This document shows positions 40,990 to 64,000 of a DNA stretch of 64,000 nucleotides, piece by piece. Origin of the DNA: Metarhizium brunneum. Taxonomy: Eukaryota; Ascomycota; Sordariomycetes; Hypocreales; Clavicipitaceae. The stretch covers positions 62,001 through 126,000 of the forward strand of contig NC_089424.1 in NCBI RefSeq assembly GCF_013426205.1, given 5' to 3'. A program made the translations under genes and the position numbers. Each line of letters starts with the position of its first letter. The first letter of the stretch is position 1. Below the pieces are notes generated by a model. The model made no database searches. It had not been told where the DNA came from and saw only the letters and a program-made list of their open reading frames with translations.

Positions 40990-41536
40990 ATGTCGGGAAC
41001 TATTGCTCCAGTTGCTGCCGTAATTACGGGGTCATTCCTCTCCGGTTGGTAAACCAATCTCAGACGAAATGCATTCCATCAGGTACAGGGTGACTAACAT
41101 GATTTCCACAGGAGCAATGATGTCTCTCACTTTTATCACGGTTCCAGTCTTCTTTGACACGACTGTCGACGAGGTGCTTCTTGTTAACCAGTGGAGACGC
41201 ATGTATCATTACGGGCACCAGATTATGCCGGTCTTGGCAATAGGTACATTTGCGTTGTATGCCGTTACGTGCATCAAATACCATGCTGCTAAAAGGCCAT
41301 ACGGCATCTTCGCCCTTGCTGCCGCGGCAACAGTCATCATGATACCGTTTACATGGTTCATTATGGCAAGCACGAATAATAGACTTTTCCAGTTGGAGGC
41401 AGCGAGCAAGATGCTCTCCCCGACGGTGGAAGTTACGGGAGTCGCGGAGCTGTTGGAGACGTGGAACTGGTTGCACTTTACGAGATCGCTGCTACCATTA
41501 TTGGGAGCCATCTTGGGCACACTGGGGATATTTTGA
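40990..41536 (+). CDS. Anthrone oxygenase (DUF1772)
   Basis: Exons 40990-41044 and 41112-41536 join in phase, giving 159 residues. Four hydrophobic segments are visible: IAPVAAVITGSFLSGAMMSLTFI, IMPVLAIGTFALYAVTCI, IFALAAAATVIMIPFTWFIM and RSLLPLLGAILGTLGIF. The family features STNNRLFQ and WNWLHFTRSLLP are present. DUF1772 proteins such as HypC and the MdpH-type anthrone oxidase convert anthrones to anthraquinones. Next to the EthD gene this gives the decarboxylation-oxidation pair expected after an atrochrysone-type PKS. Predicted membrane protein. Confidence 0.9.
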
Positions 41537-41724
41537 TTCTTGGGCTATTATATCAATACCATTGGTCTATCGATCTCATCCCTTACTCAGAGGGTCCATA
41601 GTCAACAAGTTGACATGGTACCACGAGCGTCGGTCAAGGGAAATCCGTTTCAGCAAAGAACGCATGTCAGGGAGTACATTGCAATGTTTATTCTGTACGT
41701 AAATGTCTCAAAATAGAATGCTGT

Positions 41725-42306
41725 CTAATCGACTTTTGTACTATTGACCTCGACTCCATCCCTAATTATCTCTGTAACCCACCCAATCGTCATCATGCTC
41801 CTTTTGGTATCAGCAAACTTCTCGTGATCCCCAACCAAGTGTTCTTTATACCAAGGATCTTGTTTCATTCTCTTGTAGTCATCCACATTTTGAAACACAA
41901 CTTGGCTGAAACAGTCAAAGTCAGCCAAGTTTGTCATCTGATGGTCAAAGAGCCGAGCCATTAGGCCGCGCGTCTCAAGCGTGTTGTGAATCTTTCTGAT
42001 GTCAATTTTTATTCTCAAAACAATAAAAACGAAATTGTGGTGTCAAAACACGAAGACAAAAGGTGGAAATGCTGAGGAGCCACTCATGGCCAAGCATGAT
42101 GCCTCAAATCAACTTACCATGGTCCATCTTTTAACGCCATATTTCACCATCAATCCACTCGTCATTGGGGCAGAAACTTGAGTCATGTGCTCCCTGTAGT
42201 CTTGTTCGCTCATGCCTGGTCGGCGGTAGCCACAGATTGTCAAGCAAAGAAAGTGAGTGTTGGGTTCCCCCGACGGGGGAGCTGGAATTTCTGGGTGGTC
42301 AGACAT
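41725..42306 (-). CDS. EthD-domain protein (probable atrochrysone carboxylic acid decarboxylase)
   Basis: Exons 42306-42118 and 41991-41725 join in phase ([11 protein letters not shown]), giving 151 residues. The EthD-type ferredoxin-like core is seen in [22 protein letters not shown], the glycine-tyrosine start [28 protein letters not shown] and [12 protein letters not shown]. Close relatives in emodin, geodin and monodictyphenone pathways decarboxylate atrochrysone carboxylic acid. EthD proteins are also found in conidial-pigment clusters, but the rest of this cluster supports the anthraquinone role. ACGGACTCCGA, one mismatch from the cluster palindrome, lies 107 bp upstream. Confidence 0.88.
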
Positions 42307-42412
42307 GCTAGCGCTAGTCTGGGAAATATCCTGCTTCTAAAAACAGGATAAGTGGGATTGTAAGGAGGGTCAATTATAACGGCCAATTGTCTGGTTAAAT
42401 ACTGGGCACTCC

Positions 42413-42423
42413 ACGGACTCCGA
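42413..42423. promoter_or_regulatory. Near-match to AflR-type palindrome (ACGGACTCCGA)
   Basis: Ten of eleven bases match the repeated TCGGACTCCGA, 107 bp upstream of the EthD-type gene's start codon. Possibly a weak or mutated operator. Confidence 0.45.
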
Positions 42424-42639
42424 CGCCATCGGCAGCCAGGTAGCAATACATTTACCGGAAAATGTCAACCTATATTACTACTCTTACAAACCTGGGGGTA
42501 TTAATTTTATTCGACAGCACGTTTCTCTTAAATATGCTACCTTGCTGAAATTCATCAACTGAAATACCAAATGGTAATTGCCAGATGCACGGATTTCGTG
42601 GTGGACACATGACATCTACATCTAAGGGGACCTAAAGTC

Positions 42640-42870
42640 TAAAAATTTTTAAACCTCTTAATCAAGTACTATATTTTAAATTTATTAAAATAGCGTAGAT
42701 GCTTGAGGATATTAAATATGGTTAAACTTATTATTACTTAGTTCCAGGATAAAGTTGGTATTTTAATTTATCTAATTCAAAAAAAACTTTATATTTAATT
42801 GAAGACTCTAGTGCTAGCATAAAACGCAGAAACGCATTTAAATCATCACCATAACCCACTCATTTTCACC
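42640..42870. other. AT-rich island between EthD and thioesterase genes
   Basis: This stretch is strongly AT-rich (runs such as TATTTTAAATTTATTAAAATA and AAAAAAAACTTTATATTTAATT), unlike the genes on either side. It resembles sequence left by repeat-induced mutation of a small insertion. No terminal repeats could be defined. Confidence 0.45.
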
Positions 42871-43974
42871 CTACATCACTTGAACACGAGCATCGGCCCT
42901 CGAGGCAGTCATCGGGCCCGGCATCAGCCCTCCCGCATTTTGCGGCATTGCCTCTACAGAGTACCACTTCTTCTTGCCCCCGCGGATCTCAAAAGCAACA
43001 CGGCAGTCACCCGCCAACTTTCTTAGAACCTCGTCAATGAACGGTTCTAATGCAAGAGTTCGAGTGCTCTCCTCCAACGCCTCGCCGTAGATTTCGGTGA
43101 CAAGGCCCTGTACGGTGATGCTCCTCTCACCACGGGTACGAGCGCGACCAAGCGCCTGCATTACTTGTCTCTCGCGTCTCAGCTTGCCATCCAATTCCTT
43201 TTTCAGCTTCGCCGGCAAATCAGTGATGGTGACTCCATGTGCAGAGAAGCCAACGGGGCAATTCTGCATATACATCTTCTGTAGGCTGGCCATGAAGATG
43301 CCCAAGTCCTCTACGGCGCTTGTTCCGTGACCGAGGATGTTGTCACCGGTAAACATGGCCTGCTCCTCCTCCAGAACGAAGCACATGTGGTCTTCCGAGT
43401 GTCCGGGAACATGTACAGCACGGATAGTCGCTCCCTCGACTCTAAAAACCTGGCCATCGGTAATATTCTGCTGGCCCTTGTCTGGCTCATTCTTGTATAT
43501 CGACCCTTCCAAGTGCGGATACAATCTCAGAAGGTCAGGGACGCCGCCAGTGTGATCTCCGTGCCAGTGAGTCAGCAAGACATGAGACAAGCTGACACCC
43601 ATGGATTCGAGTGTGGACGAGACCAGTTCAGCCCACGCTGGTTCCCCCCCAGAAGTATCCACGATAAGTCGATGCGTGCCAGTGCCGATGACATAGGTGT
43701 TGGTACCTTGATATGTGAACTATGTGAAAGCGTTAATCACTGACATGTATTTACATTCTGGGATCAAAAATCATCCAAAGCGCACCTTTCCGGGATTCTG
43801 ACCCAGTATACGTAGAACTCGAGGCGTGAGCTGCTCGACATTCGGTAGTTTCGGCAGATTCGTTGTTTGTCCCTGTAGATAGTCTTCAAACGCACATATA
43901 TTCAACGACTTGTTGATCTGCCTGTATCCGCCTTTGTCTGCTTGCATGACCGCTGTGTTGATATCTTGAACCAT
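42871..43974 (-). CDS. Metallo-beta-lactamase-type thioesterase
   Basis: Exons 43974-43786 and 43719-42871 join in phase (NPGK|FTYQGTNTYVIG), giving 345 residues. The zinc motif THWHGDHTGG and the later HVPGHSEDHMCF and FTGDNILGHGTS histidine and aspartate blocks define the metallo-beta-lactamase fold; RERQVMQAL belongs to the C-terminal helical part. TE-less group V non-reducing PKSs (ACAS, MdpG, AptA) depend on such a partner to release atrochrysone carboxylic acid. It sits divergently from the PKS with an AflR-type site between them. The N terminus is about 40 residues longer than in most relatives. Confidence 0.92.
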
Positions 43975-44998
43975 TTCATCAAGCGTATCGGGAAGATTTC
44001 TCTAGACTCAATTTAGCCGTCGTAATGACTCTTTCGTTTCAAACTCGCTTACAGATAGTTGAGGCTCCAGGAAAGATTTGGTGATGCTTTTTGCAGAAAA
44101 AAACATCGTGGCAAGAGCCAGGCTCAGTGTATAGAATGCGACATCAACACCCTGTTTGCCGGCGTGCCAATTCGATGGAAGCCGAGTGGCGAAAATAATA
44201 AGCCTAAACAGGGTCTGCAGCGGCGTCGCCGAAATCCAGATGAAAAATGAGCCACCATGAATTCGCTAGGTATTTCGATTTATGCCGAAGGAAACCTGAC
44301 GCTCGGACTCCGACACTTGAACGAGTCTATCCGAGGAGGTTGCCGCCATGCAGTAGTCTTGTATCAGCTTTCCTATCGACAAAATTCTCCACTTTCTGAC
44401 AGTCCTAAACTGACTCAAGCGGACAAAGAGTTCCGAATCAAGCAAGAAGTTCCGGTGCAAGTCGAACGGCCTTCGGATGAATCCACTCGGGGCGAAGGAG
44501 CATGTGGTTCAGAAAGAACAGGCCCATGATCCACTGTGAGATTCTGACAGAAGGAGATTTACGTTGACTTTGATGTTGTGGGAGGCTACGGAGTGTCCAT
44601 CGTTTCGGAGCACAAAGCTCACCTCGGCATGCCACGACTGGGCAAATCCGGCTGCATTTACGTGGCAAATTGGGGACTATAGACGAGAAACGCCCTCCCA
44701 CAGGGCATAACGGTACAACCAAATTTGTAATTGTACAATTCTTACTTATATACCTAGCTGGAGACATTTTCTTCGTATGAAGCAAGTCCAACTGGCGAGT
44801 TCATGTCTCGCCGTCAGCAACCGATGAGCATATCTTGTTGGATACATGCCCCGTCCGTACCATCAGTTTGTTGAAGTCTGGGCTCGCTCTCCGCACTTCT
44901 GAACTTGAATTAAGTCTGGTGGCCCCAGCCGCAAAAAGCCCCTATCGGTGCTAAGCATTCCGTTGCCATCTCTGCTTCATCGATCCTCGCTCCCAACA
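43975..44998. promoter_or_regulatory. Divergent promoter between thioesterase and PKS
   Basis: About 1 kb with only short frames lacking recognisable motifs. It contains the exact palindrome at 44303 and feeds both the thioesterase (329 bp away) and the PKS (686 bp away). Confidence 0.6.
44303..44313. promoter_or_regulatory. AflR-type palindrome TCGGACTCCGA
   Basis: Exact copy of the 11-mer in the shared promoter of the PKS and its thioesterase. This is the location most expected for an AflR-type operator. Confidence 0.72.
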
Positions 44999-47900
44999 AT
45001 GGTTATACACACCCCCAATACAATTTCAGACAGCGATGGAGAACTATGCAAGATGAATTTCATATACTTCAGCAATGAGTTTCCGAAAGGCGATCTTCAA
45101 GATCTTCTACGTCTCCTGCATAGCCACAGCAAGGACAAACATCACCCAGTTCTAGCCCAATTCATAGATGAAGCTACGCGGGCCGTCAAGGACGAAGTTC
45201 GCGCTCTACCAAGCGAGTTGAAAGATTTGATTCCGTCATTTACTACCATTCTGAGTTGGGCTGAAGATGGCGGCCTTCGCGAGGGTCTCATCTGCGGCGC
45301 TGTGGATGGAGTTCTCCTCGTCGTCGTTCAGTTAGCGGCGTATATTGGGTGAGTAGCCGTTTTCCTCCATGCTGTCACCTAGGCTCGTTAACAGTTCACG
45401 GCGTAGATATACGGAAAGTCACCCTGAAGAGTCCGTCGACGTTTCAAATTCCGGCCTCCTTGGCTTGGGCATTGGGTTGCTAGCCTCGACAGCCATCTCG
45501 TTGTCATCGACCCTATCGGAGTTGCCGCTTGCAGGCGCAGATGCAGTTCGGTTGGCCTTCCGTTTGGGAATCCACGTTCTGAGCGTCTCGGAGAACCTGG
45601 AGGCCAGGGACGTGTCGCAAAAGGAGGACTCATGGGCGTACGTAGTTCATAATGTCGACCCAGTTGCAGCCCAGAACGAGCTCGACATATTTCATTCTCG
45701 ATTAAACACACCGAGTACGGCGAAAATCTTTGTGAGTGCTATCAGTCAGAATTCTGTCACAGTCAGCGGGCCACCTGGAAGATTAAAGGGTCTGTTCAAC
45801 AAGTCAGAGTTCTTCCGCGTGTCACGATGCATTCCTTTACAAGTCTACGGAGGCCTCTGCCACGCACCACACATCTACAACCAACAAGATATACACGCTG
45901 TAGTGTACGGTAGCTCCTTGAACACCATTGTGTCGAAAGCTCGGCCAGCTTTGTTGGTTTACTCAACCAGGACCGGACTGCCATACACGGCAAATAATGC
46001 GGCAGAACTGTTTGAGTGTGTCATATCAGAGCTGATGACAAAAGCAATCTGCTGGGATGAAGTTATTCGTGTCGTGGTGGACCAGGTTCAGTGTGCTGGA
46101 CCTCGCGGAGTGGTGTTGAATTGCTTTGGGAATTCAATTCCACTCAATGACCTCAATCTTGCCTTGACGAGTACGCTGCCGGACTGCAAGCTTTTAATAA
46201 AAGACTTCATTCCATGGCTCTCCCTTGCTGCGCCAAGAAGCAACACTCCCCGCGGTGCCGCGCAGTCCAAGCTCGCCATCGTTGGCATGTCTTGCAGACT
46301 CCCAGGGGGCGCAACAAGTACTGAAAAGTTTTGGGATATCCTGGAAAAGGGCCTGGATGTTTCGCGGCAGATACCTGCTGACCGCTTCGATATCAACACG
46401 CATTACGACCCAACCGGCAAAGAGCTTAACAAGACCATGACACAATACGGTTGTTTCATAGATGAGCCCGGCTTGTTCGACGCACCCTTCTTCAACATGT
46501 CACCCCGTGAGTCACTGGTAGTTGATCCACAGATGCGATTATCTCTAGTCACAGCTTATGAGGCACTGGAACAAGCCGGGTTTGTTGCAAACCGCACCGC
46601 CTCGACAGCATTGCCACGAATTGGGACGTACTATGGCCAAGCTGCCGACGACTATCGTGAGGTGAATCAGGGCCAGGAGGTTGGAACTTACTATATCCCC
46701 GGAGGTTGTCGTGCGTTTGGCCCGGGCCGTATCAATTACTTCTTCAAATTCGCTGGCCCCAGTTACAGTATTGATACCGCCTGCTCCTCCGGCCTGGCAG
46801 CGATTGAAGTGAGTGACGCAGCAGTATCTGACGGGGTTTCCTAAGCAAACGAAGCTAATATACGTGGATAGGTAGCTTGTCAGGCTCTGTGGGCTGGCGA
46901 TGTAGACATGGCAGTCGCTGGCGGCGTGAACGTGCTCACCAATCCCGATGGTTTCGCTGGATTATGCAACGGTCACTTCCTTACCAAAGGCCACAACGCA
47001 TGCAAGACCTGGGACGCCACTGCGGATGGTTACTGCAGAGCAGATGGCGTTGGATCTCTTGTAATTAAGAGGCTTGAAGATGCCGAGCTGGACAACGATA
47101 ACATCCTCGGCGTCATTCTCGGCGCCGGGACCAACCATTCCGCGGAAGCAGTATCTATTACACACCCTCATGCCGGTCACCAAGCTTATCTTTCTCGTCA
47201 AGTGCTTCGCCAGGCTTGTGTTAATCCTTTAGACGTGTCCTATGTCGAACTACATGGCACCGGCACTCAAGCCGGCGATTACGAAGAGATGCAGGGGATC
47301 ATGGACGTTTATGCTCCTCTAGCCAAGCGCCGTAGCAAAGATAAACCTCTACATATAGGCGCTGTCAAGGCAAATTTGGGTCACGGAGAATCCGTTGCTG
47401 GTACGACAGCTTTGATCAAGGTGCTTCTCATGCTCCAGAAGAATGCCATTCCACCGCATATTGGTATTAAGACGGAGATAAACCCAAAGTTTGGCCGCGA
47501 CATCGACAAACGTCATCTCAAAATTCCGCTCGAGATGACGCCATGGCCACATGTTCCCGGAAAAAAGCGAATTGCTGCAGTGAACAACTTTGGAGCCGCC
47601 GGTGGCAACACGACCATGGTCCTCGAAGAGGCACCAGTCCGCCCAGCGGATGAGACGGACCCGCGGCAGACTCATGTTATTTCTGTATCGGCCAAGACTA
47701 GATCATCGCTGGCTGGAAATATCGAGTCCTTACTCGGATTCCTGGATAAAAATCCAAACACCAACTTGGGCAATCTTGCGTACACGACGACAGCGCGACG
47801 CTATCAGCACACCCACCGCGTTGCCATCGCCGCATCCAACATTACACAGCTGAGGAAACAGTTGACTTCGCGCCTGGATCAGATCGATTCTATCAAGCCC

Positions 47901-50561
47901 GTCGCAAAATCTGGCCCGCCGCCAATTGCCTTCACCTTCACTGGTCAAGGAGCGTCTTACAAGTCGATGAGTCTAGAGCTGTATCGAGATGTTCCTACGT
48001 TCCAACATCACATTCGCCATCTTGACTCTCTCTCTCAGTCTCAGGGTTTCCCCTCTTTTATCCCTGCTCTTGACGGATCACATCCAAAGGAACACGAACA
48101 TTCCCCAGTTGTTACGCAGCTTGCGTTGGTTAGTACCGAGATAGCCTTGGCTAAATACTGGGCTTCTCTCGGAGTGAAACCCGACGTCGTCATGGGCCAT
48201 AGCCTTGGCGAGTATGCGGCGATGCACGTAGCCGGGGTGGTTACTGCCAGCGACACCTTATACATGGTCGGAAAACGGGCACAAATGCTGCAGGAAAAAT
48301 GTGAGAGCGGCAGTCACTGTATGATGGCCGTCCGGGCTTCTCTAGAAGAGATAAAGGCGAGGTCAGAAGGCAAGCCGTACACAATTGCGTGTATCAACGG
48401 CCCCTCGGATACGGTGCTCAGTGGCACCAAGCAACAAATAGACGAGGTTTCTATTCTCCTCGAGCAAGCCGGTTTCCGGTGTATCAAGCTGGATGTCGCC
48501 TTTGCCTTTCACTCGGAGCAGACGGATCCTATTTTGGATGACTTTGAGGCCATATGTAAGTCTGGAGTCACTTTTCAGGAACCCAAGTTGCCTGTCATCT
48601 CCCCGTTGCTTGGCAAGGTTATATTCGATGGCAAGACACTCGGCGCCAACTATGTCCGCCGCGCTACTAGGGAACCAGTTGACTTTCTGTCTGCTTTGGA
48701 GAACGCCCAGAGGGTTTCCACCATCAGTGATGAGACGGTTTGGGTCGAGGCTGGTCCGCATCCTGTATGCACTGGCTTTGTGAAGTCTATAATCCCCGCC
48801 ACACAGCTCGCCGTTCCATCTATCCGGCGTGGTGAAGACAACTGGAAGACCATGGCCGAGAGCCTGGCGGCTCTGCATCTCGCGGGTATCCCCGTCAGGT
48901 GGAATGAGTTTCACCGTCCCTTTGAGGTCCGGCTTCGTCTACTTCATCTTCCGGCCTACTCCTGGAATAACAAGACCTATTGGATGCAGTACAATGGCGA
49001 CTGGTGTTTGACAAAAGGCAACAACTTCTATGAGACTGGGAATGACGCAACTAAGGCCAAGGCAGCGCTGAAGTCGCCCCCGCCAAGCGAGCTTCAGACA
49101 TCAACAGTGCAGCAGATTATCGAAGAGAGCTTTAATGGCTCAGCTGGTTCAGTGGTTATGCAGTCTGATCTCATGCAACCTGATTTTCTTGCTGCCGCCT
49201 ACGGACACCGTATGAATGATTGCGGCGTTGTGACTTCTGTAAGCCTTGTAATCGCATGACTCTTTGCTACCACGTGCTCACAATTTTTATAGTCTATCCA
49301 CGCCGACATTGCCTACACCCTCGGTAGCTATCTGCACCGCAAGTTGCTTCCCAAAGCCAAACAAGCAAACATGAATATTAGCAACCTGGTCGTCACAAAA
49401 GGGCTCGTGGCTAATAGCGACACAAAGTCTCCTCAGTTGATCCGTGTGACAGCCTCGACTGTTGATGCCCACTCAGGTGTTGTTGACTTGACGTGGCAGA
49501 ATGTGGACAACAACGGCTACGTCCATGAGCCGTTCGCTACTGCCAACATCATTTATGGTGATGCAAATGAATGGATCTCCAGTTGGAATCCCATTGCTCA
49601 TCTCATACACAGCCGGATTGAAACTCTTGAGCGCCTGGCCGTAGAGGGCAGGGCTAGCAGATTCTCCGGCAACATGGCGTATACGCTGTTTGCAAGCAAC
49701 TTGGTAGACTACGCAGAAAAGTACCGGGGCATGCAGTCCGTCGTGATGCATCAACTGGAAGGCTTCGCCAACATAGAGCTCACCACCAAAGAGGGCGGAG
49801 TCTGGACAGTCCCGCCATATTTTATCGACAGCGTGGCACACCTGGCGGGCTTCATTATGAACTGTTCTGACGCCATCGACACGAAGAACAACTACTGTGT
49901 CACCCCTGGCTGGAATTCCATGAGGTTTGCGAAGCCACTGGTTCCAGGGGCGCAGTATCGCTCCTATGTCAAAATGATACCAACAGTCGAGGACCCAACG
50001 ATATATTTTGGTGATGTCTACATCATGCAAGACGACATGATTGTAGGCATGGTTGGCGGCATTCAGTTCCGTCGCTATCCACGCATTCTCTTGGGCCGAT
50101 TCTTCTCGCCTCCAGACAAGGCGGCAGCTATGGAAGGCAAGCAAGGTATTGTTGCGCCGCAGCCAAAGACGACACGGCCAGCCCTCAAGTCTGCTGGTCC
50201 TGAAAGGGATCACGGCAAAAATAATCTGCCACCAGTCAAGCCTGCTGCTGAAGTTGCTGATGAACCGAGCAAAGACAAGCTTCCACCTACCAGTGCTGGG
50301 GTACCAGCCGTGGAGTCCGCCACGGGGTCTAACAGCGTCGCATCCAAGGCACTGCAAGTCATTGCCAGAGAAGCCGCCTTGGAAGTTTCCGACCTGGAGG
50401 ATGATGCTAGTTTCGACAATCTGGGAATAGATAGCCTGATGTCGCTTGTGATTGTGGAGAAGTTCAGGATTGAGCTGGACATCAAAGTTGGCGGGAGTCT
50501 TTTCTTGGACTACCCGACGATTGGCGATTTCCGGAAGTGGCTTGAGGAATATTACGGCTAA
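44999..50561 (+). CDS. Non-reducing polyketide synthase, SAT-KS-AT-PT-ACP, TE-less
   Basis: Exons 44999-45348, 45407-46808, 46872-49238 and 49293-50561, all in phase, give 1,795 residues. The SAT domain (1 to about 380) starts [20 protein letters not shown]. The KS follows from about 404, with the active Cys in DTACSS near 574 and the His motifs HGTGT and ANLGHGES. The AT carries GHSLGEYAA near 1024. The PT begins around the His in [10 protein letters not shown] near 1362, and one ACP carries LGIDSLMS near 1753. There is no thioesterase or methyltransferase domain. This architecture and the SAT and PT signatures match group V PKSs that make atrochrysone carboxylic acid, the precursor of emodin, endocrocin and relatives. 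Release would be by the neighbouring metallo-beta-lactamase enzyme. Confidence 0.95.
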
Positions 50562-51428: not shown

Positions 51429-52907
51429 ATGGGTCTCGTACCACAAGCCATTTACTTTGCTTTTTATCCACACCAACTGCGGATGATAATTCAGTGGTTG
51501 GCTTTAACCCTCCCTCAGAATTCTCGAGGTTCTGTCCCATCATCGATGCTGTCTATCCATATGCCGAGCCTGCTAACCTGTGATTAATTGCATGGACGTA
51601 GGAAACTTTGGCATAATCCCCTGCACAAGACAGACGAAGACAAAGAACTGACAACAGCCAAAATCTGCTAAAAGTTCCTAGACCAGACCAGTCGTAGCTT
51701 TAGCCCTGTCATCAAGGAACTACACCCCGAGCTACGATTACCTATATGATTGTTCTATCTGGTACTTCGTGGCCTAGACACCATCGAAGACGATACGTCC
51801 ATCTCTCTCAACACAAAAGAGCCCCTCCTGTGAGATTTCCACAACTTTCTCGATCAAGATGGTTGGACTTTTACGGGCAACAGGCCTGAAGAAAAGGATC
51901 GGGAACTGCTGGTGCAGTTCCACAACGTCATTACTGAATTTAAGAAGATAAAGCCCGCCTACCAAGCGATCATCAAGGACATCACCTCTCAAATGGGCAA
52001 TGGCACGGCCGATTTCGTGCGAAAAGCTGCTTCAGGGGACGTAAGCATCAAGACCCTCGAGGCGTACGACCTCTACTGCTGGTATGTTGCTGGTGTGGTT
52101 GGTGAGGGTCTGACCCGCCTCATTTGTCGAGGCCAATATGGGCGACGCAAGACTGGCAGAGAACGCGCAGCTCTACAAATCAATGGGTCTGCTGCTGCAG
52201 AAAAATAATATCACCCGGGATGTGCGTGAGGATTTCGACGATAACCGCTGCTTCTGGCCTGAGGAGATTTGGTCCAAGCATGTCGACAAGTTTGAAGACT
52301 TGTTCAAGCCAGAATATCTTGACGCTGCTCTAAACTGCAGTTCCGAGATGGTCCTTAATGCTTTGCTGCATACATGCTACTGCTTCTCCTATCTTAAGTG
52401 CCTGCACGACCAAAGCGTCTTCAACTTTTGTGCCATTCCTCAATCCATGGCCATGGCTACTTTTGAGCTATGCTTCCGCAATCCGGCCATGTTCCAGCGC
52501 AACATCAAAATCCCCAAGGGCGATGCTTTCCAGTTAATGATCGAGTCCAGCAGAGACATTATTGTTGTTTGTGCCATTTTCCGCCGTTACAGTATACGGA
52601 TCCAACAGAAGAACGACCCCGCGGACCCCAACTTCGCGGAGATTAACAAGGCGTGTGAAAAGGCTTGTACCCTAACTGTTCCCCCCAGTTTGCTCTGCTT
52701 CTTGACAGACTGCTAATGGTTCTACGGATTCAGAGCTATGCCGACACCATCGGGTCGCAACAAGCTGGCAAGATGTTGGTCGTTGGTACGCGACGCGCCC
52801 AAGGAAAGTGGTCCAACCCTCAGCTGGCATTCGCCAGTGTTGCAATCACATCGACCCTGATACTTGGAGCTGCCTTGGTTATGAAGGGCCAATTTGAGTT
52901 CGCCTGA
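51429..52907 (+). pseudogene. Squalene synthase (ERG9-like) paralogue, inactivated
   Basis: Starts like fungal squalene synthase (MGLVPQAIYFAFYPHQLRMIIQW, then an intron). It keeps KFLDQTSRSFSPVIKELHPELR, the first Asp motif [35 protein letters not shown], the second Asp motif [21 protein letters not shown] and a C-terminal membrane segment. The reading frame has at least three internal stops (a TAA before KFLDQ, TGA before LFYLVLRGLD, and TGA before DFHNFL), a one-base insertion near 52122, and another frame change near 52680. The two TGAs are explained by C->T in CGA. It is therefore a dead copy. Core ergosterol synthesis needs a functional ERG9, so an intact one must exist elsewhere. Confidence 0.87.
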
Positions 52908-55068: not shown

Positions 55069-56494
55069 TCACAGTACGCCATCAGAGGGTGCGCTCGTGC
55101 ATTCCAAGAACCTAACAATCAGGCTCTCCGTCTCATCCCGAGCCGCCTTGAGCTGCTCCGCAGTCTTGCGCATCCTCATGAATGGGCTATCTAATTCGAA
55201 GGGACTTACTTTATCCTGGAGCCAGTAAATATCTGCGATTTGCTCAAAGTGTGAGATAGTGTGAGGCCTTGCTGCACCTGCCCGGGCGAGCTCCTCGTCC
55301 CAAGCTTTTGCTACATCCCATTGGACCTCTGAGCAGTCCGCATTTAGGCAAGATTTTGAAAAGCCCCTGAGCATTGCATTGCGAAGGTTGAGATTAGATG
55401 GGCTTTCATATGGTCCTGGAAGTTTACCACCTGATATATTACCAAAAGAGAATCCCATGAATTCATCTGCGACTGTCCCAATATAAGAGAAGTCAAAATC
55501 CAGTAGCGCAGTCACCTGAAGAGTGGTGGCATCGAAGAGGAGATTATTTGTTGCTAGAAACGTCGATATTAGAGGCGTCTGAAGTAATTAAAGCTGTATA
55601 GAAGATGGTAACTTACTAAAATCAGAGTGAACGAGAACTCTCCGGACGTCCTTATAATCCTTTAAGGTCTCTTTAAGTCTATAAACGATAAAATTTTCAA
55701 GTTTCGCTCTTACACCATTCTCTCTCCAACCTCGGATCACAGGGTTCTCATCAGCTTCTTGAAACTTGACTTTGAATATAGCGCTTAAGAGGTCCTTGTA
55801 AGTTGTACAAGGCTCGCCCTTGAATAAAGTCATCTGCGCGCTGACAACCTTCCCATCTTCATCAAACTTCAGTCCTCCGAATCTATCCACTGTCGTTGGA
55901 ATCTTGAACTGCTGGAGTAGGGCTAGGATATCGGCCATTTGTCCGAGCACAACTGATTTATCCTGCAGAGTCAAATCCTCGAATCCTCTGTCAGGCATGG
56001 TCCCATGCATGTATTGCTGTATACTAAAACCCTGACCACTAGATGTGCCAGCCCAAGTGTATACGTCTGGAACAATATGACTGTATTTGGACTTCGCAAG
56101 CGCCTGTCGGACGAGGGTCATAAAGGCGACTTCATTTTCAATACGGTTGGTGTTATTTAATCCAGTTCCTGGATGGGAATTCGCGAGTCTGAAAATCAGG
56201 GACGTAGCATTCGCTGGGAATGGCACAGTGCCTGGTTGGAATTCAGCAAACTGGGAAGATTTGATCTTGATCGTTGTGGTTGTCGGCGATGGAAGAGTGA
56301 CAAGGTAGATGAAATTGTTGTAGGGAAACGGGGGGCCGTCCATGTCATATTCGACTGGCTCAATGCTCGTCGCCTGAATTGTCGTTAGTATATGCCGTTC
56401 CAGCACAGAAGAGATAAGACAGTACTTCTAGATGATTGAGCTGGAGAATTGATTTAACAAAGTCGATACGCGAATGGTAATGTTCATGATTCAT
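55069..56494 (-). CDS. APH-like phosphotransferase (aminoglycoside kinase family)
   Basis: Exons 56494-56426, 56373-55617 and 55553-55069 keep phase and give 436 residues. I placed the start at 56494 (MNHEHYHSRIDFVKSILQ) because the downstream in-frame GTG would lack the first helix. Kinase features: PFPYNNFIYLVTL (nucleotide-binding strand), NRIENEVAFMTLVRQAL, catalytic loop VLVHSDF...NNLLFD, and metal-binding ALLDFDFSYIG. Fungal members of this large family mostly have unknown substrates (small molecules or proteins). It lies at the edge of the RiPP locus, divergent from the HxxHC protein gene; membership in that pathway is only suggested by position. Confidence 0.87.
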
Positions 56495-57136
56495 CGTGTG
56501 CAAAGTGCGACTAGGAGATATCCCTAGACAGCTCTTCTGTAGTATGAGTGTCCAATGCAGAGGGAGAGAATGGTTGTCTGAAAATCTGATAGACTTATTC
56601 AGCTCGAGGGGCGTTTTATCTCTGTTGATGTGCTTGAGTTATGACAAATACTGCATGAAAGAACTACCAGACCCTTGTAAAACCTTCGGCCGATTGGAGA
56701 AGGTAGGACTGCAAACCCTGTCTTCGCAGGACATGTCGGCCTCGGCCTTGCTTACATATTTAGGCAGGCAGCAGCATTCGCAACCAACAACATAAATGAG
56801 AATTTATTTGGCAAGCCCCCTGTGGGCTGACTCCCATTCGCCAAATATGCAATGCCACACGACTCCGCATCAAGTTCATCACACATCCATGCGGGTCAAA
56901 CTCCGGGCCGCCGTGACATTCGTTGGCTTTGCGTCTATTCCCTCAGAGACCATTTCCATCTGACAAGTGGCTCTCAATTTGCATTATTGCGCAGCATAAA
57001 ATGGAAAAGGAATCTGCCACACGTCCGTCTTCGTATAATGCGAATTCGTCAACTTAGCTGCTTGATATATGTCTCTAGCTGAATCCGACATTCAAACCTC
57101 ATCTACATGTGACGAGGAAAGCCGCTCAAGATCCCA
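56495..57136. promoter_or_regulatory. Divergent promoter between kinase and HxxHC membrane protein
   Basis: 642 bp between two genes read outwards, with no convincing frame. No shared motif with the precursor promoter was recognised. Confidence 0.45.
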
Positions 57137-57763
57137 ATGCCACAATACTCACCTGTTGCTGCTGAAGGCAGCTCTAAGGATCACGAAGAGATGACTGTCG
57201 CCCGGAAATGCCCCAAAAGGTACACTGTTTTCACTATATCACTCGTGCTGATGGGTCTCACTATCACCACCTATATCTATGCCTCAATATCAGCCTCGCC
57301 ATCACCACGGATCAAATTTCCCAAAATAGAATCATGCGGCGTTACGCCCACTCAAGCACGCTCTAACGGCTGCCGCTTCGATGTTACATCATTCTCATGG
57401 TTACCACCAGCCTGCTACGATGATTTACTGGTTGCCAATTTTCTCGCCTTAGAATCCTGGGAATGGTTTTCCGACCCGTTAGGCACTCAGCCAGTTCCTC
57501 TGGAGGCGATTCAGGAAGGAGAAGTGGCGCTTGTGTATGTGTCTTGGAGATATCATATTGCTCATTGTGTTTTCATGTGGCAAAAAATGCATAGAGCTTT
57601 AGAGAATGGCGGAATGATTGATGGTTACATCGGAAATTATAATCATACGAGCCACTGTGGTCATATGTTGATGATGGTGGAGAATGAGGCGAGGGGTGCT
57701 CTGAACACCATTATTCGGAGGAAATTTGTTGGATGTGGCATTGATGAGGTTGTTATCATGTAA
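57137..57763 (+). CDS. Membrane protein with two HxxHC motifs, UstYa-related
   Basis: Single exon, 208 residues. One transmembrane segment (YTVFTISLVLMGLTITTYIYA, about 29-49) precedes a lumenal domain with CGVTPTQARSNGCRFDVTSFSWLPPACYDD. The C-terminal half carries YHIAHCVFMWQKMHRAL and YNHTSHCGHML, two HxxHC motifs spaced as in the UstYa/DUF3328 oxidases, although the rest differs from canonical UstYa. UstYa proteins put oxidative cross-links or other changes into ribosomal peptides such as ustiloxin. I infer a divergent copper- or iron-type oxidase of this locus; the exact family name could not be confirmed. Confidence 0.75.
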   Translation: MPQYSPVAAEGSSKDHEEMTVARKCPKRYTVFTISLVLMGLTITTYIYASISASPSPRIKFPKIESCGVTPTQARSNGCRFDVTSFSWLPPACYDDLLVANFLALESWEWFSDPLGTQPVPLEAIQEGEVALVYVSWRYHIAHCVFMWQKMHRALENGGMIDGYIGNYNHTSHCGHMLMMVENEARGALNTIIRRKFVGCGIDEVVIM

Positions 57764-57866
57764 CGATCGACGCGGCAGGATTTTGGGGAGGCATGGATTT
57801 ATGGTTAGGGACATTAAAGCTGAAGGATGATGTATTGATCAAAGTACCCTCTCAACTAAACAATCT

Positions 57867-58778
57867 CTAGGCGCTATCTTCAACATAAATAGTCCTGTCA
57901 AAATCTTTGACTTGATTCTCCTTTGCCCAAACTCTGATGTCCTCGAAGTTGCGACATGTGTGTGCGATTTCTGCCACTGCCTTAGCCTCGTGATCCTCTT
58001 CCCACCACTTCCAAGGAATAGGAGTAACATCAGCGGAACACATCAATGACTGTCGAAGAGCATCAATACAATGCTCAAGATGCTCAATTCCCATCAGCTC
58101 ATCATCAGGTTTGTAAGTCTCAGTCGACCAGATGCGTTTTCGTATCATGTTCTACAATTATGATTTAGTCAAAGTCGGTACGAACAGAACCTCCCAATGC
58201 TTACGACGCAATGTAACTGGTGGAATACATTCAAACTAACGACGTAATACCCCTCGTCATTGGGAATAGGAACGGTCTTGTTTAGCAGCTGCGAGGCTGA
58301 TGATCTTGGAATACGACTAACGCCGACTGTATTACATGTTAGTTGAAACACTTACCGAAAGACCCGGCTGGCATAAAAGACAATACAATTATATAGATCG
58401 TCCCACAAGGCGTTACGTTCTGGAGTAGGGGGGCCTTGATATTTCGTTCTTCCCGTACCAAATCCACCTGTGAATACGACATTCTTATAGCTGAGGAGAT
58501 GATTCACTGGGGCTAAAGAGAATTAGGTAAAGGTCATCTTCAGTCCGGCAGAATAAATACTTGCAGTATATTTCCTTTCCATTCTGCGGAATCCTTCGGC
58601 GTAGTTGAATAAATTCGTGAGCAGTTGCAGCACAGAGGGTAGCGATGATGATCCATTGGAAGAAAATAACAAACATCCAACGTCGGCTCAGTCGACTTGG
58701 AGTGAATTTATTCCCTGGAAGAAAGGGTTCTTCATCCGCGGCGCTTGTTTTTGGCGCATTTGCAAATTTTAGAATCAT
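57867..58778 (-). CDS. UstYa/DUF3328-family oxidase (copy 1)
   Basis: Four exons, 58778-58565, 58512-58387, 58326-58205 and 58151-57867, give 248 residues. The first intron keeps phase only with a GC donor (GCAAGT), yielding [15 protein letters not shown]. One membrane helix ([20 protein letters not shown]) is followed by the family blocks [32 protein letters not shown], and [21 protein letters not shown]. The two HxxHC motifs are the presumed metal sites. By family it should catalyse oxidative cyclisation or another oxidation on a RiPP core peptide in the secretory pathway. It is divergent from the second UstYa gene, with 622 bp between start codons. Confidence 0.9.
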
Positions 58779-59400
58779 TTCTGCTAGAAATAATTAACTG
58801 TTATAGAACTTCAAACGTTGTCGAGAGGTTGAAGTGTCTGAGGTGTCGATCGAATTGCAACGTCTAAAGTTTGGTTCAAAAAAAGAGCAGGAGCTAGCGC
58901 CTCTGTGACTTTGCATTATTGACTTGCCGCTGTCATGATGCTAAATTTGTTGAGCACAGATTGTTAGCTCTTAAAGAGGAAGGAGAATGGTTTCCTATGC
59001 GCCACGCTGATCCTTGCTCTGCTGAAGACCGTAACAATCTTGCTAGGTGCCTCGGCAAGCTCGGAATTCACGGCGGCTTACGGAAGTCGCTGACAGAACT
59101 CTTGAAATGTAACAACGGCGTTATGCAACACAGACGCCGGCTACTTTCCGCCTCTACGACCTTCCTATAGTAGCATTTACCTATTGCAAGGATTTGGGCC
59201 GCGACCACTGTACATTGTATCCGTATTAGACTCCTCGTTGGTGGGGTAAACTATGAGAACGATGCTCACTCTAAAATGTCCAAATTGCAAATGAAACTCC
59301 TGCAACATAGCTTTGTCCGGAAGTTGATTCTCCTGGAAGGAAAACTCTCCATTTTACCCACTTATTATCCACAATACTTAGAGCATTCTTCAGTCACAAA
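58779..59400. promoter_or_regulatory. Divergent promoter between two UstYa genes
   Basis: 622 bp. The part nearest copy 2 (59141-59270) is homologous to the region just upstream of the RiPP precursor. A short open frame at 58919-59170 has no recognisable motif. Confidence 0.55.
59141..59270 (+). promoter_or_regulatory. Shared promoter module, copy A
   Basis: It aligns by eye over about 130 bp to 61270-61400, with blocks ACTTTCC, CTTCC(T/C)ATAGT, CCTATTGCAAG, CGTATT.GAC.CCTC.TTGGTGGG, TAAACTAT and GATGCT. It ends about 130 bp before the UstYa copy 2 start. Confidence 0.7.
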
Positions 59401-60477
59401 ATGGACCTCATTAAGACTCAACAATATTCTCTGTTAGGCAAAGAACCGCACAGGGATTCGTTGTCTATCGAGGACATTAATCTCAAGGGCGAGACCGAGG
59501 AAACACTACCTCCTCGTCTATCTCGGAAAGCCGGATTGTGGCATGTCCCACTGTGTGGACTTTGGTATTACGGACTACTGGTTATAGTCTCTTTGCTTGC
59601 GTTCTACTCAGGATGGAAATTCTCTCCAACATCTCCACCTCATGCGCATATTGATACAGCATGGCGTAAGATCTCTGTGCTGTTACATTCTTCGAAACTT
59701 CAATAAGGTTTCTAATCAAATGACTTTGTCTTCATAGATGACTTGAAGAGTCAAATAAGATACGTTCCGTACACATTTGACCCGCATTTTGTAACTCCCC
59801 CTTCATCATATATGGGACAACCAACCCCAGAATTAGATAAGAAGTGGTACCATCTTGCGGAATGTACGATATACAGCCCCTAACATACGTCCGACACATG
59901 ACTGATCAAGAATATCCAGTACGCAACTTTGCCGTTAACCACGAAACCCTCGTTCGTGCAAACAAGTCCAAGGCTGCCGTACGATGGCCTGGCACTAAAA
60001 CCTATCAAGCTGGCTTAGAAGCTTTTCACCAGTTGCACTGTCTGGTGAGTCTCAGCTAAGCTTGATGAACCCGGCAAGTTTACAGAGAATTTAGAATTAA
60101 TGTCCTCAAGAACTACATCAGGATGTATACATACATGGACTACTACAGCAAAATAGACTTCGATATGCTCCAAGAGCCGCTCGAAGAACGAACCGAACAC
60201 AAAGTTAAGTTGTCCCTACCTTCAGACCTTTTAATAAATTTACTGAGGCTCGTTATCAGATCACTGCATTGATGTACTCCGCCAACACTTGATGTGTGCC
60301 CCCGACCTCAACATTTACACATTTCACTGGACCAAACACTCTTCTGTACCATTTTTCGATTTAACCACAAATCATAAATGTATTGATTGGAACCGATTTG
60401 ATTCTTGGACTGTTGGTCAGATGATACATGAAGGTCCACCACCAAAACCTTTCGATGACGACGATCTTCTGGACTAG
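59401..60477 (+). pseudogene. UstYa/DUF3328-family gene (copy 2), apparently frame-broken
   Basis: Family blocks in order: a membrane helix (LWYYGLLVIVSLLAFYSGW), MGQPTPELDKKWYHLAE, FHQLHCL, NVLKNYIRMYTYMDYYS, HCIDVLRQHLMCAPDLN, and HKCIDWNRFDSWT. Exons 59401-59665, 59738-59863 and 59920-60044 join in phase. After HQLHCL no AG acceptor brings in NVLKNYI in frame, and the next donor (AAAGTTAAG) is one base off the phase needed for HCIDVL. Two separate one-base conflicts suggest either an inactivated gene or indel errors in the sequence. If intact in reality, it would be a second oxidase for the RiPP, and its promoter is shared with the precursor. Confidence 0.7.
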
Positions 60478-61020
60478 CATTGTGGGAATATGTTATATTT
60501 GAGGAGAACAATGGAACTAAAGCATTTCATAGTTCTATTCGGTCAGGATTTGATTCCAGGAAGTTTTGAACCATCACTACGAAGGAGCAGGCTGCGGAGG
60601 TTTTATTCAAAACTGATGAGCTCAATCGCCACCGATTCTATTGAATTCGTAGTTTCAAAGGAACTAAGATACATGTCCTCCATCTATTTGAAAATCATAA
60701 TTCCTCGCGCAGTTGAATTCTCCGCTTTGGCCTCTTTAGGGGCACTGCTGCGCATTCGTTCCCGGCGGTGGCTTGACGCAGCAGTATGCTAATTGATACC
60801 GACGACACGAGGTCCAATAACACTACTAAGTTGGCATACATTACGTTGGTTTGGAATGCGCCAGGGTAGTGCAATGTCACCTCCGCGCTGGCTACCCGCA
60901 TGTCGGCTTACGAAGCTCGTATTACAGATGAGCTACTAAAGCTTGCCTTGGACATGCAAATATCCCCGAGCCATATAAAATTCTGGAGCTTACTGCAATA
61001 ATGAGGCATTTTGAAAGCAG
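60478..61020. other. Intergenic, nothing recognised
   Basis: About 540 bp downstream of UstYa copy 2. A 100-residue open frame (60490-60792) has no recognisable motif. Confidence 0.45.
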
Positions 61021-61196
61021 AGCCGACCTGCGAGGCCCTTTTGGTTTGTAGGAAGTCAAACCAACACGCATTGCTAGAGATAGCCAACGTGCAAGGTCCT
61101 TTTGGTGTTTAGGAAATCAAACCAACATGCATGGCTAGAAATAGCCAACCTGCAAGGCCCTTTTGGTTTTTATGAAGTTAAACCAACACGCATGGT
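61021..61196. repeat. 61-bp tandem repeat, three copies
   Basis: Units begin at about 61021, 61082 and 61143, each with CAAGG(C/T)CCTTTTGGT... and GAA(G/A)T(C/T)AAACCAACA(C/T)GCAT. CTTTTGGTTT and AAACCAA within one unit are partly complementary, so each unit could form a small hairpin. It lies about 350-525 bp upstream of the precursor start. Confidence 0.8.
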
Positions 61197-61269
61197 CACG
61201 TCATATAGACGAATCGCTAGTTCGACGCATTGAAATTCTAGGTAAAGTGTTTGTAATTGCATTGGTCTA

Positions 61270-61400
61270 AACTTTCCTCTTCTACGTACTATCTTCCCAT
61301 AGTCGTATTTGCCTATTGCAAGACATTTTTCCGTAGCCTCTACACATTCTTTTTCGTATTCGACCCCTCCTTGGTGGGATAAACTATAAAAAGGATGCTT
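61270..61400 (+). promoter_or_regulatory. Shared promoter module, copy B (precursor promoter)
   Basis: Homologous to 59141-59270. AAACTATAAAAAGG at 61381-61394 contains a good TATA box, replaced by AAACTATGAGAACG in copy A. It ends about 147 bp upstream of the precursor start codon. Confidence 0.7.
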
Positions 61401-61546
61401 GCTTAGGCTTTCAATAAACTTGTGCAGTAACCAGCAATAGTTCATCGAATTATTGTCACAGTCTAGCAGCGCAGGCCAAAGGCACTAAAACTTCAAATCC
61501 ATCTGTTAAATCAAATCTTTTCCTGATCTTAATCTCCGCTATCAAG

Positions 61547-61991
61547 ATGAGAATTTCATCCCCAATTGTTTGCTCGTTGCTAGCGGCGTCTGCGATTGCG
61601 GCTCCTGTGTTGAAGGGGAACGAAGTCAAGGTATGAAAGATTTTCTCGATATGGAAAGTCAAGGCTTATTACAAGATTAACTAAATAGGCACTTCGAAAG
61701 CCTTCTTTTGCCGCTGACTATGGAGAAATTATCCAGCGTGATGTTGACGTCGCCATTGACGGCAAACCCGTCCATATTGAGGGCGGATATATCAGAAATT
61801 CCGATCTTAAGCGTCTCGGCTGGGACATTAGAGACCGCGATGAGAAGCGCCAGGTAGACGTTGACGGCGTCGCTACAAGAAGTGGCTGGGGTTACATTAA
61901 AGCACGCGATGAGAAGCGCCAGGTAGACGTTGACGGCGTTGCTACACGAAGTGGCTGGAGTTACATCAAAGCACGCGATGAGAAGCGCTAG
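61547..61991 (+). CDS. Candidate RiPP precursor peptide with Kex2-processed repeats
   Basis: Exons 61547-61630 and 61689-61991 join in phase, giving 128 residues. A clear signal peptide (MRISSPIVCSLLAASAIAA) is followed by a pro-region and a diverged first repeat containing GGYIRNSDLKR. A short segment ending RDEKR comes next, then two 23-residue repeats (residues 83-105 and 106-128) whose centres read GVATRSGWGYIKA and GVATRSGWSYIKA, each ending in KR. Secreted proteins with tandem repeats cut by Kex2 at KR are the precursors of dikaritin RiPPs (ustiloxin, phomopsin, asperipin, epichloecyclins). The invariant Tyr-Ile beside Gly/Ser recalls the Tyr-Ile pair of the ustiloxin core. Surrounding UstYa-type genes would provide the oxidases. 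The exact core and product are unknown. Confidence 0.85.
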
Positions 61992-62027
61992 GAAGACGTT
62001 GACGGCGTCGCGACAAGTTCAAGGTAG
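61851..62027 (+). repeat. 69-bp coding repeats of the precursor plus a degenerate third copy
   Basis: Near-identical 69-bp units at 61851-61919 and 61920-61988. A third, partial unit follows from 61989, whose first codon is TAG where the other units have CAG, so translation stops there. It continues readably (GAA GAC GTT GAC GGC GTC) to about 62027. Confidence 0.85.
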
Positions 62028-63152
62028 AGTTATATTTGAGGGATCGAGTGTTGTTGATTCATTGCTACATGTGTTGGCAATATAGAACCCTCGTAATATT
62101 ATGGCTCTACTCGATATCTGAACAAGAATATTGATATATATCTTCCTGGCTCGGCTAAGATTGTTCATGAATGAATGATCTGTACCTAAGAGGGCTAAAA
62201 CGAGACAATTCGAAATAACTTACAAGCAGACCTTGAACTCTACATCATTGTTGATCTTGGACTAATGTAGTCTTGGGTGCAAACACTGTGAGAAGTGGCT
62301 TACAAGCGGGGATGCTGATGTAGCTGCTAAAGAGGCGGTAACGGACAGGGCCGAAGTGGATACGTTTGAGACGTTTTTCAATGTAAAAATTTGCAGTAGA
62401 GGTTAGATCTCGTCGTACAAGGAAGGGCAGATTCATGGAGTACTATGTGCCCCGTTTTTGGAGCTTCTAGAGCTTCTAAATGCACGTACCGTTCATAACG
62501 CTCTCGAAAATCTGTTCTCATTTGCCACATGACAGCCTATCCTTACAGTTCTCAGCATTACCCCGCGGTCGAGAGTCAGACAGGCGCGGATGTGTTCGTT
62601 GACTTTGCTTCTGAATCGGAGGTCGCCGACTGCCCGTAACCAACTCGCAATCTGGCGGGCCGTTTGTCTATTAAACTCTCCGAGCCTCTCCCATGCAGCT
62701 CTTTTGTTTCGGCAAATTAAAGACAGAGTGGTATCCTACCCGTCAGGTCTGCAATCGCTTACGCAGAATAGTACATACAGGCCGGGGCCAAGCTAGGCTT
62801 GACAGTTAGGCGGCTGGCCACCTGACTACGTTGTGTAACATTTGCGAAATATCCACAATCTAGGCGTAGCAGTACTACGTTCCAAAAGTTGTGTGGAGAC
62901 TCATGTAACTCGCAGAGCCGGGAATATGCCGCTTGGACGCCATAATAAGCAATCAGAGCGCTATGTAGAGGAGTGGCCAGGCAAAAGAGCTAGATATTAC
63001 CCATTCTTATGGGGGTTAATTCAGATAGAAGTCTTTCATAGACTCCGCCAGTAAGGAGATCCGGCCTATGCTCCCCAAGCGATCAGATCTTGGTCTTTAG
63101 TGGCTACAGCTTATCAAGGCTCTCAACTTTCACCCGCGCAGGTCATCTTGCC
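62028..63152. other. Intergenic, no gene recognised
   Basis: About 1.1 kb between the precursor and the third UstYa gene. Only short frames without recognisable motifs occur. Confidence 0.45.
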
Positions 63153-64000
63153 ATGGATCACTCTAGCAGCGAACATTTGCTCACAGATACGAACAAAGGT
63201 GGCATTAGTGAGAGTCAAAGCGTTACCATCAGTGACCATGGATGTCCAAGGAGCCGAAATATGAGTATTGTTCTTGTTTTGTCTTTGGTCTTAAACGTAC
63301 TGATGCTTTCCCTTTTGTCTCTCCTCTTACTTGGAGTTTCCAGTCAAGATTGCCCGTCCTCAATCATCAACGACCATGGGGGTGCTTCACTGAATAGCGG
63401 CCCAAGAGGAGCGGCCTCATTTTGTAAGCCTTCGTCATGAGAAAACATCGCACGGCTCTAATCATGGCTCCATAGCACCTTTTTTCGACCTTGTCAATCT
63501 TACGACACACTCCCAAAAGATCAATGGCAGGATACACGACAACACTACAATCTTCCGACACGACCCATCTCCCGCAGTTGATGAAGCATGGGACCATCTC
63601 TCTACCGAGGGATACGAGGTTATTCTCGTGGATGAGACGACGGTTATAAAATCAGGGAAGTCGCCACATCTGAGCGTTAAAGCACCTTTGAGTTGGGGCT
63701 TCGGCGATGGCAAGTATCTCGCACAGATCGACGTGTTCCATCAAATCCACTGTCTGAATGAACTCCGCAAGGAGATTCACTTCGACTATTACTATGGCGC
63801 GAATTGGGACAAGACATCGATACCGCCTGAGCATGCTGCGCATAAAAAGCACTGCATTCATATACTGTTGCAGAATATAATGTGCCACGCTGACGTGGAC
63901 ATCATTACGCACAACTGGGTGCATTATGAGAACATGGACAACCGCGACAGGCCTTACGCGGAGCCGTTGGCAGACTTCAACTTGATCAAAAGCTGCCGTG
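63153..64000 (+). CDS. UstYa/DUF3328-family oxidase (copy 3, runs off right edge)
   Basis: Exon 1 is 63153-63423; exon 2 starts at 63476 and is open to the window end, about 265 residues so far. A membrane helix (IVLVLSLVLNVLMLSLLSLLLLG) precedes a lumenal domain with DPSPAVDEAWDHLSTEGYEVILVDE, VFHQIHCLNELRKEIHFDYYY, and HKKHCIHILLQNIMCHADVDIITHNWV. Both HxxHC motifs are intact. The short Pro/Ser-rich linker after the helix differs from copies 1 and 2, so it is not a recent duplicate. The locus probably continues beyond base 64000. Confidence 0.9.

What the first reader, a model, noticed from the sequence alone, without database searches (positions are those of the whole stretch)
55069..64000. 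Candidate new dikaritin-type RiPP cluster with a Kex2-repeat precursor and UstYa-type oxidases
Seen: a 128-residue secreted protein with tandem repeats each ending in KR, three DUF3328 proteins with paired HxxHC motifs, a further membrane protein with two HxxHC motifs, and an APH-like kinase within 9 kb. Known: ustiloxin, phomopsin, asperipin and epichloecyclin clusters combine exactly such precursors with UstYa oxidases. The repeat centre GVATRSGW(G/S)YIKA is not a core I recognise from those families. Inference: the product is a cyclic peptide with an oxidised Tyr-Ile or Trp/Tyr link. The cluster lacks visible methyltransferase or tyrosinase genes in the window, so more genes may lie to the right.
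Basis: partly seen in the sequence, partly recalled or inferred. Interest (0 to 1): 0.92.

Follow-up and report, generated by a model that had tools for sequence, protein, structure and literature searches.

The report
Fungal repeat-precursor cyclic peptide gene cluster
A fungal chromosome, most likely of the insect pathogen Metarhizium brunneum, carries a small group of genes that look built to make a ring-shaped peptide from a repeated precursor; this is a known kind of system with an uncharacterised core, and part of the cluster appears to be decaying.

Summary
The observation largely holds. A 128-residue secreted-looking precursor (61547-61991, one intron) carries two near-identical 23-residue repeats, QVDVDGVATRSGW[G/S]YIKARDEKR, each ending in a Kex2-type KR, plus two degenerate upstream copies. 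Within 6.5 kb lie two intact UstYa (DUF3328) genes (C, F; Pfam E 1.7e-48 and 3.6e-51), a third UstYa gene (D) for which no splice model tried joins all its parts, an intact HxxHC membrane protein outside Pfam (B), and an APH-fold gene (A).

New evidence: the 129 bases upstream of the precursor are homologous to those upstream of UstYa gene D (74% identity, E 2.7e-15), which ties precursor and oxidase together and suggests shared regulation.

The genome matches M. brunneum in size and chromosome number. The regions scanned hold two more precursor-UstYa loci: a ustiloxin-type one (core YFIG, tyrosinase nearby) and one with core FIWDW about 53 kb away, beyond a helvolic-acid-like cluster. No tyrosinase match lies on this contig.

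Verdict: a genuine, tyrosinase-free dikaritin-type locus, possibly partly decayed; a new member of a known kind. Core chemistry and activity are inferred. No related genome could be compared.

The parts
55069..56494 (-). Gene A: APH-fold kinase-like protein, 436 aa, exons 56494-56426, 56373-55617, 55553-55069; membership in the cluster uncertain
   Evidence: Spliced model with HSDFTTNN and LLDFDF (motif meaning recalled); Pfam APH E 2.6e-15
57137..57763 (+). Gene B: 208-aa single-exon protein with an N-terminal hydrophobic stretch (by eye) and two HxxHC motifs; not UstYa by Pfam
   Evidence: No family of note in Pfam or NCBIfam; four other places in the genome match it, one at C5:227 kb about 3 kb from a UstYa match; hhalign to the UstYa set aligns the paired HxxHC, but at probability 2.5, P 0.019
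57867..58778 (-). Gene C: UstYa-family protein, 242 aa, exons 58778-58561, 58490-58387, 58326-58205, 58151-57867; HQLHC and HLEHC
   Evidence: Pfam UstYa E 1.7e-48; model
59143..59266 (+). Upstream element of gene D, homologous to 61271-61399
   Evidence: Self-blastn 73.6% over 129 columns, E 2.73e-15; local score of the two upstream regions 92 against at most 27 at 492 random places
59401..60477 (+). Gene D: UstYa-family gene, probably broken
   Evidence: Pieces match UstYa E 2.4e-06 and 9.3e-17; no model of 50,817 holds all five blocks
61021..61203 (+). Three tandem 61-nt direct repeats upstream of the precursor gene
61271..61399 (+). Upstream element of the precursor gene, ending 148 nt before its ATG, homologous to that of gene D
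61547..61991 (+). Gene E: precursor, 128 aa, exons 61547-61630 and 61689-61991
   Evidence: Splice model; hydrophobic N-terminus peaking at residues 7-17
61740..61814 (+). Degenerate upstream copy DVDVAIDGKPVHIEGGYIRNSDLKR
   Evidence: Score reached by 1 of 2000 shuffles; stretch picked by eye
61815..61850 (+). Degenerate partial copy LGWDIRDRDEKR
   Evidence: Whole pro-region against the unit: 3 of 2000 shuffles reach the score
61851..61919 (+). Repeat unit 1, QVDVDGVATRSGWGYIKARDEKR
61920..61988 (+). Repeat unit 2, QVDVDGVATRSGWSYIKARDEKR
61989..62031 (+). Stop codon and degenerate copy beyond it, not translated
63153..64000 (+). Gene F: UstYa-family protein, 305 aa, exons 63153-63423 and 63476-64122 (runs past the window end); HQIHC and HKKHC
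   Evidence: Pfam UstYa E 3.6e-51; two-exon model; genome match E 1.4e-45

Best explanation
This is a dikaritin-type (Kex2-processed repeat precursor plus UstYa) RiPP locus without tyrosinase. Proposed steps: the precursor enters the secretory pathway by its signal peptide (inferred from sequence); membrane-anchored UstYa oxidases C and F, perhaps helped by HxxHC protein B, oxidatively cross-link side chains in the aromatic stretch GW[G/S]YIK just before ARDEKR (inferred); Kex2 cuts after each KR (site shown, cutting inferred) and trimming frees two nearly identical cyclic peptides that differ by Gly or Ser before Tyr. Homologous upstream DNA suggests that the precursor and oxidase gene D were co-regulated. 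D is probably lost and one repeat lies outside the frame, so the pathway is either working in reduced form or in early decay.
For: Precursor model and repeats. Two intact UstYa genes within 3.7 kb of it. Homologous upstream DNA of precursor and gene D, with nothing of the kind at the other two precursor loci. The two other UstYa-linked precursors found share a two-exon layout, signal-peptide exon then repeat exon (introns of those two read by eye), and have cores followed by A...KR: YFIG-ADKR and FIWDW-AKSEAHKNEKR. Y, I and a following basic residue recur in the degenerate copy GGYIRN. Unit differences are mostly silent, 3 of 4, P 0.037, a weak test. Literature: UstYa (DUF3328) genes that accompany KEP genes lie on average 3.09 genes away, and 65.6% of the repeats of such KEPs hold Tyr (PMC7329392, abstract and passages).
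Against: Gene D has no intact model and a degenerate copy lies beyond the precursor's stop; only two good repeats remain. Decayed NRPS fragments sit in the same region. The clean shuffle control is offset by 15 hits in reversed sequence. Core boundaries are a guess. No expression or metabolite data; no relatives could be searched. UstYa proteins also act outside RiPP clusters (PMC12048977, passages).
Confidence: 0.7

Rival explanations
1. Relic: the locus was a working dikaritin cluster but is now a decaying remnant that makes no product; B, C and F survive by chance or serve elsewhere.
For: Gene D broken in every model tried; degenerate copy past the stop; neighbouring NRPS fragments interrupted by stops or frame changes; only two good repeats.
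Against: A, B, C, E and F are open over their full length; the repeats differ mainly silently.
Confidence: 0.22
2. The precursor yields linear secreted peptides (signal or effector type), and the UstYa genes belong to other chemistry, for example the neighbouring NRPS.
For: Only 22% of KEP genes have a UstYa neighbour (PMC7329392, abstract); UstYa proteins also act in cyclochlorotine clusters (PMC12048977, passages; non-ribosomal origin of that peptide recalled); NRPS fragments lie 5-9 kb right of the window end.
Against: Precursor and a UstYa gene share upstream DNA; the NRPS fragments are interrupted; the repeats hold Trp and Tyr.
Confidence: 0.06
3. A repeat-bearing cell-wall protein (PIR type) or a mating pheromone precursor, unrelated to RiPPs.
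For: Signal peptide, Kex2-like sites and tandem repeats are shared with both (recalled).
Against: No PIR or pheromone family among the Pfam matches at E up to 1; no cysteine in the repeats; KEPs annotated as pheromones are, with three exceptions, not beside UstYa genes (PMC7329392, abstract).
Confidence: 0.02

Closest known systems
Asperipin-2a cluster
   Same: KEP beside a UstYa-type oxidase, without tyrosinase; single UstY gene there (PMC12048977, passages). Here no tyrosinase or S41 peptidase match on the contig
   Different: Core FYYTGY (recalled) against GW[G/S]YIK; here two intact UstYa genes, one broken, plus gene B. Asperipin has a reductase and a transporter; a reductase was not looked for here, and only a transporter piece was seen at C3:129.6-130.1 kb
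Ustiloxin and phomopsin clusters (KEP type G-10, core YXIX)
   Same: Signal peptide, KR-ended tandem repeats, several UstYa genes
   Different: Here Y is followed directly by I (YIK), not YXI; no tyrosinase near. The genome has a separate locus of that type on C1, core YFIG, with tyrosinase matches
The FIWDW precursor locus of the same genome, C3:175-181 kb
   Same: KEP with UstYa matches on both sides; holds the closest paralogue of gene C among the regions fetched (36%); similar two-exon layout (by eye)
   Different: Unrelated repeat TPQGSFIWDWAKSEAHKNEKR; no shared upstream element
Epichloecyclins
   Same: DUF3328 protein in the cluster (PMC12048977, passage); repeat precursor (recalled)
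   Different: Core sequences unrelated (recalled; not compared by a tool)

Membership tests
Dikaritin (KEP plus UstYa RiPP) | Precursor with N-terminal signal peptide and repeated cores | tested here: met
   signal peptide judged by hydrophobicity only
Dikaritin (KEP plus UstYa RiPP) | Kex2 (KR) sites between repeats | tested here: met
   Both units end in EKR; cleavage itself not testable
Dikaritin (KEP plus UstYa RiPP) | UstYa/DUF3328 protein with two HxxHC motifs close to the precursor (class-defining enzyme) | tested here: met
   C and F by Pfam; both motifs invariant in an alignment of five UstYa sequences of this genome (with an earlier 240-aa model of C)
Dikaritin (KEP plus UstYa RiPP) | Oxidative side-chain cross-link in the product | not testable with these tools
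   Needs metabolite data
Ustiloxin/phomopsin type (G-10) | Core YXIX | tested here: not met
   Units read YIKA
Ustiloxin/phomopsin type (G-10) | Tyrosinase in the cluster | tested here: not met
   0 of 15 tyrosinase matches listed are on C3
UstYa family (for gene B) | Pfam PF11807 match | tested here: not met
   No UstYa match at E up to 1
UstYa family (for gene B) | Paired HxxHC in the same order and the same fold | tested here: inconclusive
   Motifs present and aligned, but probability 2.5; predicted models too poor to compare, mean pLDDT 34.6 and 39.7
PIR cell-wall protein | PIR repeat family match | tested here: not met
   No such match at E up to 1

The most novel reading that the evidence does not exclude
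The cluster makes a new cyclic peptide with a Trp-Tyr (or Trp/Tyr-Lys) cross-link set by UstYa oxidases together with gene B, a second and so far unnamed family of paired-HxxHC membrane oxidases found beside UstYa genes, with precursor and oxidase co-regulated through a duplicated promoter.
Probability: 0.15. Interest if true: 0.65.

Novelty: new member of a known kind. Interest (0 to 1): 0.45.

Why it matters
Some fungal cyclic RiPPs (ustiloxins, phomopsins) are strong tubulin inhibitors, and most predicted precursors have no known product. If real, this gives an uncharacterised core in an insect-pathogen genus used in pest control, a small tyrosinase-free gene set to test, a candidate second oxidase family (gene B), and a case in which shared promoter DNA links a precursor to an oxidase gene. 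A second locus (FIWDW) lies about 53 kb away for comparison.

Tried and rejected
A PDB sequence search with gene F gave only a heme oxygenase at E 0.2, no solved UstYa relative. Structure prediction of B and of the window part of F from single sequences gave mean pLDDT 34.6 and 39.7, so no fold search was run. Gene B as a UstYa member: Pfam negative, hhalign weak. The upstream element as a genome-wide module: each query found only itself in the genome search, a search that also missed the known partner copy, so nothing is concluded. Shared upstream DNA at other loci: only the repeat arrays themselves pair at the FIWDW and YFIG loci; C5 has one 62-nt pair away from its UstYa matches; the C4 region is full of diverged repeats. 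Tyrosinase or S41 peptidase on C3: none among 15 and 2 listed matches. PIR and pheromone readings: no Pfam support. The reversed-sequence control of the repeat scan was not clean, 15 hits.
Full report
WHERE IT IS. The window is C3:62001-126000 of a 37,771,916-base genome in 7 contigs. M. brunneum ARSEF 4556 is listed as 37.80 Mb in 7 chromosomes, and a helvolic-acid-like cluster is reported for M. brunneum (PMC13236867, passages). A squalene-cyclase-family gene with P450, short-chain dehydrogenase, FAD oxidoreductase and acyltransferase genes lies at C3:136-154 kb, as expected for the helvolic acid cluster that Metarhizium carries near a PKS cluster (PMC5088523, passages). The species is inferred from this; the helvolic label rests on gene content and recall.

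THE PRECURSOR. The best splice model, 61547-61630 plus 61689-61991, encodes 128 residues with a hydrophobic N-terminus. Two 69-nt units encode QVDVDGVATRSGWGYIKARDEKR and QVDVDGVATRSGWSYIKARDEKR; four codons differ, three silently (P 0.037 for so few changes of residue, a weak test). Two degenerate copies precede them (whole pro-region 3 of 2000 shuffles, a hand-picked stretch 1 of 2000); one keeps GYI plus a basic residue. The stop codon follows unit 2 at once, and a degenerate copy with stops of its own lies beyond.

THE OXIDASES. C (242 aa) and F (305 aa) are full-length UstYa proteins by Pfam, E 1.7e-48 and 3.6e-51. In an alignment of F, C (earlier 240-aa model) and three other UstYa sequences of the genome both HxxHC motifs are invariant. 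D matches UstYa in pieces, but the best of 158 models holds 3 of 5 conserved blocks, and none of 50,817 holds all five; the widest search stopped at its cap with 4 of 5. An assembly error cannot be excluded. B has two HxxHC motifs; no named family fits. The genome search lists five places for B, itself included: one other lies at C5:227 kb near a UstYa match at C5:230.6 kb; one, at C5:1709 kb, carries stops; the other two were not read. So 2 of 5 are known to lie beside UstYa genes. A is an APH-fold protein; nothing links it to the pathway beyond position.

SHARED UPSTREAM DNA. Self-comparison of 54-65 kb finds, apart from the tandem arrays, one pair at E 1e-3 or better: 59143-59266, ending 135 nt before the ATG of D, and 61271-61399, ending 148 nt before the ATG of the precursor; 73.6% identity, E 2.73e-15. 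The local score is 92 against at most 27 at 492 random places of the 124 kb. Upstream pieces of B, C, F and of the FIWDW precursor show no match of that kind in the 124 kb (one 21-nt match at E 0.032 for C), and the other two precursor loci show none of their own. The simplest reading is a duplicated promoter that put precursor and oxidase under one control (inference). This is the strongest new evidence that the precursor belongs with a UstYa gene, although that UstYa gene is the one that looks broken.

OTHER PRECURSORS IN THE GENOME. UstYa has 30 listed matches, 27 over the cut-off. A scan for KR-ended in-frame repeats over 328 kb, 14 regions around these matches including the window, found three precursor arrays: the focal one, YFIG on C1 (5228 kb) and FIWDW on C3 (177 kb). 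The other hits were an antisense reading of the FIWDW array, an out-of-frame reading of the YFIG array and a lysine-rich stretch at C5:694 kb. Twenty shuffled sets gave 0 hits; reversed sequence gave 15, from the focal and YFIG arrays, C5:685 kb and C5:694 kb. The rest of the genome was not scanned. The YFIG locus has tyrosinase matches at C1:5222 kb and fits KEP type G-10, whose YXIX core is reported for Metarhizium and other genera (PMC7329392: passages, first part of section 6, and section 9) and whose EDYXI motif is reported for M. robertsii (PMC6339444, section 10); the scan thus recovered a known case. The precursors share a signal-peptide exon, a short intron and a repeat exon (for the focal one; the other two read by eye).

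WHAT IT DOES. By analogy with characterised dikaritins, the oxidases would cross-link the aromatic stretch and Kex2 would free the peptides. In the three loci the presumed core is followed by Ala and a charged tail to KR, which points to GW[G/S]YIK here; this boundary is inference. Lack of tyrosinase (0 of 15 listed matches on C3) and of S41 peptidase (0 of 2) makes it closest in gene content to asperipin-2a, which has a single UstY (PMC12048977, passages).

NOVELTY. Ten paper searches were made (one search listed 25 of 55 papers). By titles and abstract starts none is about a RiPP of this core in Metarhizium; none of the searches used the core's letters, but the words YIKA and GWGY do not occur in the main text of PMC7329392. 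Subscription papers are mostly not in the library. Hence 'new member of a known kind'.

LIMITS. No related fungal genome, no expression and no metabolite data were available; structure models were too poor to use. My confidence that this is a true KEP-UstYa locus is about 0.9; that it now makes a product, about 0.6 to 0.7.

Noticed in passing
G000:C3:175-181 kb (L013/L014), about 50 kb right of the window end: A second precursor locus: signal peptide, probable intron, four repeats with core FIWDW (TPQGSFIWDWAKSEAHKNEKR), UstYa matches on both sides, some of them with stops inside the matched stretch.
   Followed up: partly
G000:C1:5222-5228 kb (L019/L020): Ustiloxin-type locus with six repeats of core YFIG, a UstYa match and tyrosinase matches.
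   Followed up: partly
window 61021-61203: Three 61-nt tandem direct repeats, 344 to 526 nt before the precursor ATG; possible regulatory array.
   Followed up: no
window 51834-52713: Squalene/phytoene synthase pieces (Pfam E 2e-11 and 8.1e-18) between the PKS region and the peptide locus, possibly serving the helvolic-acid-like cluster to the right.
   Followed up: no
window 35352-49256: Non-reducing-type PKS pieces (SAT, KS, AT), a metallo-beta-lactamase-type protein, questin oxidase and methyltransferase domains: looks like an anthraquinone-type cluster (recalled).
   Followed up: no
G000:C3:130.8-134.9 kb (L009): NRPS fragments (AMP-binding, condensation) interrupted by stops or frame changes, apparently a decayed synthetase.
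   Followed up: no
window 57137-57763 and G000:C5:227218-227868: Family of gene B: shared CG-x-T, AR, GC, WLP, HIAHC and a second HxxHC, without a Pfam UstYa match; two of its five places lie near UstYa genes.
   Followed up: partly
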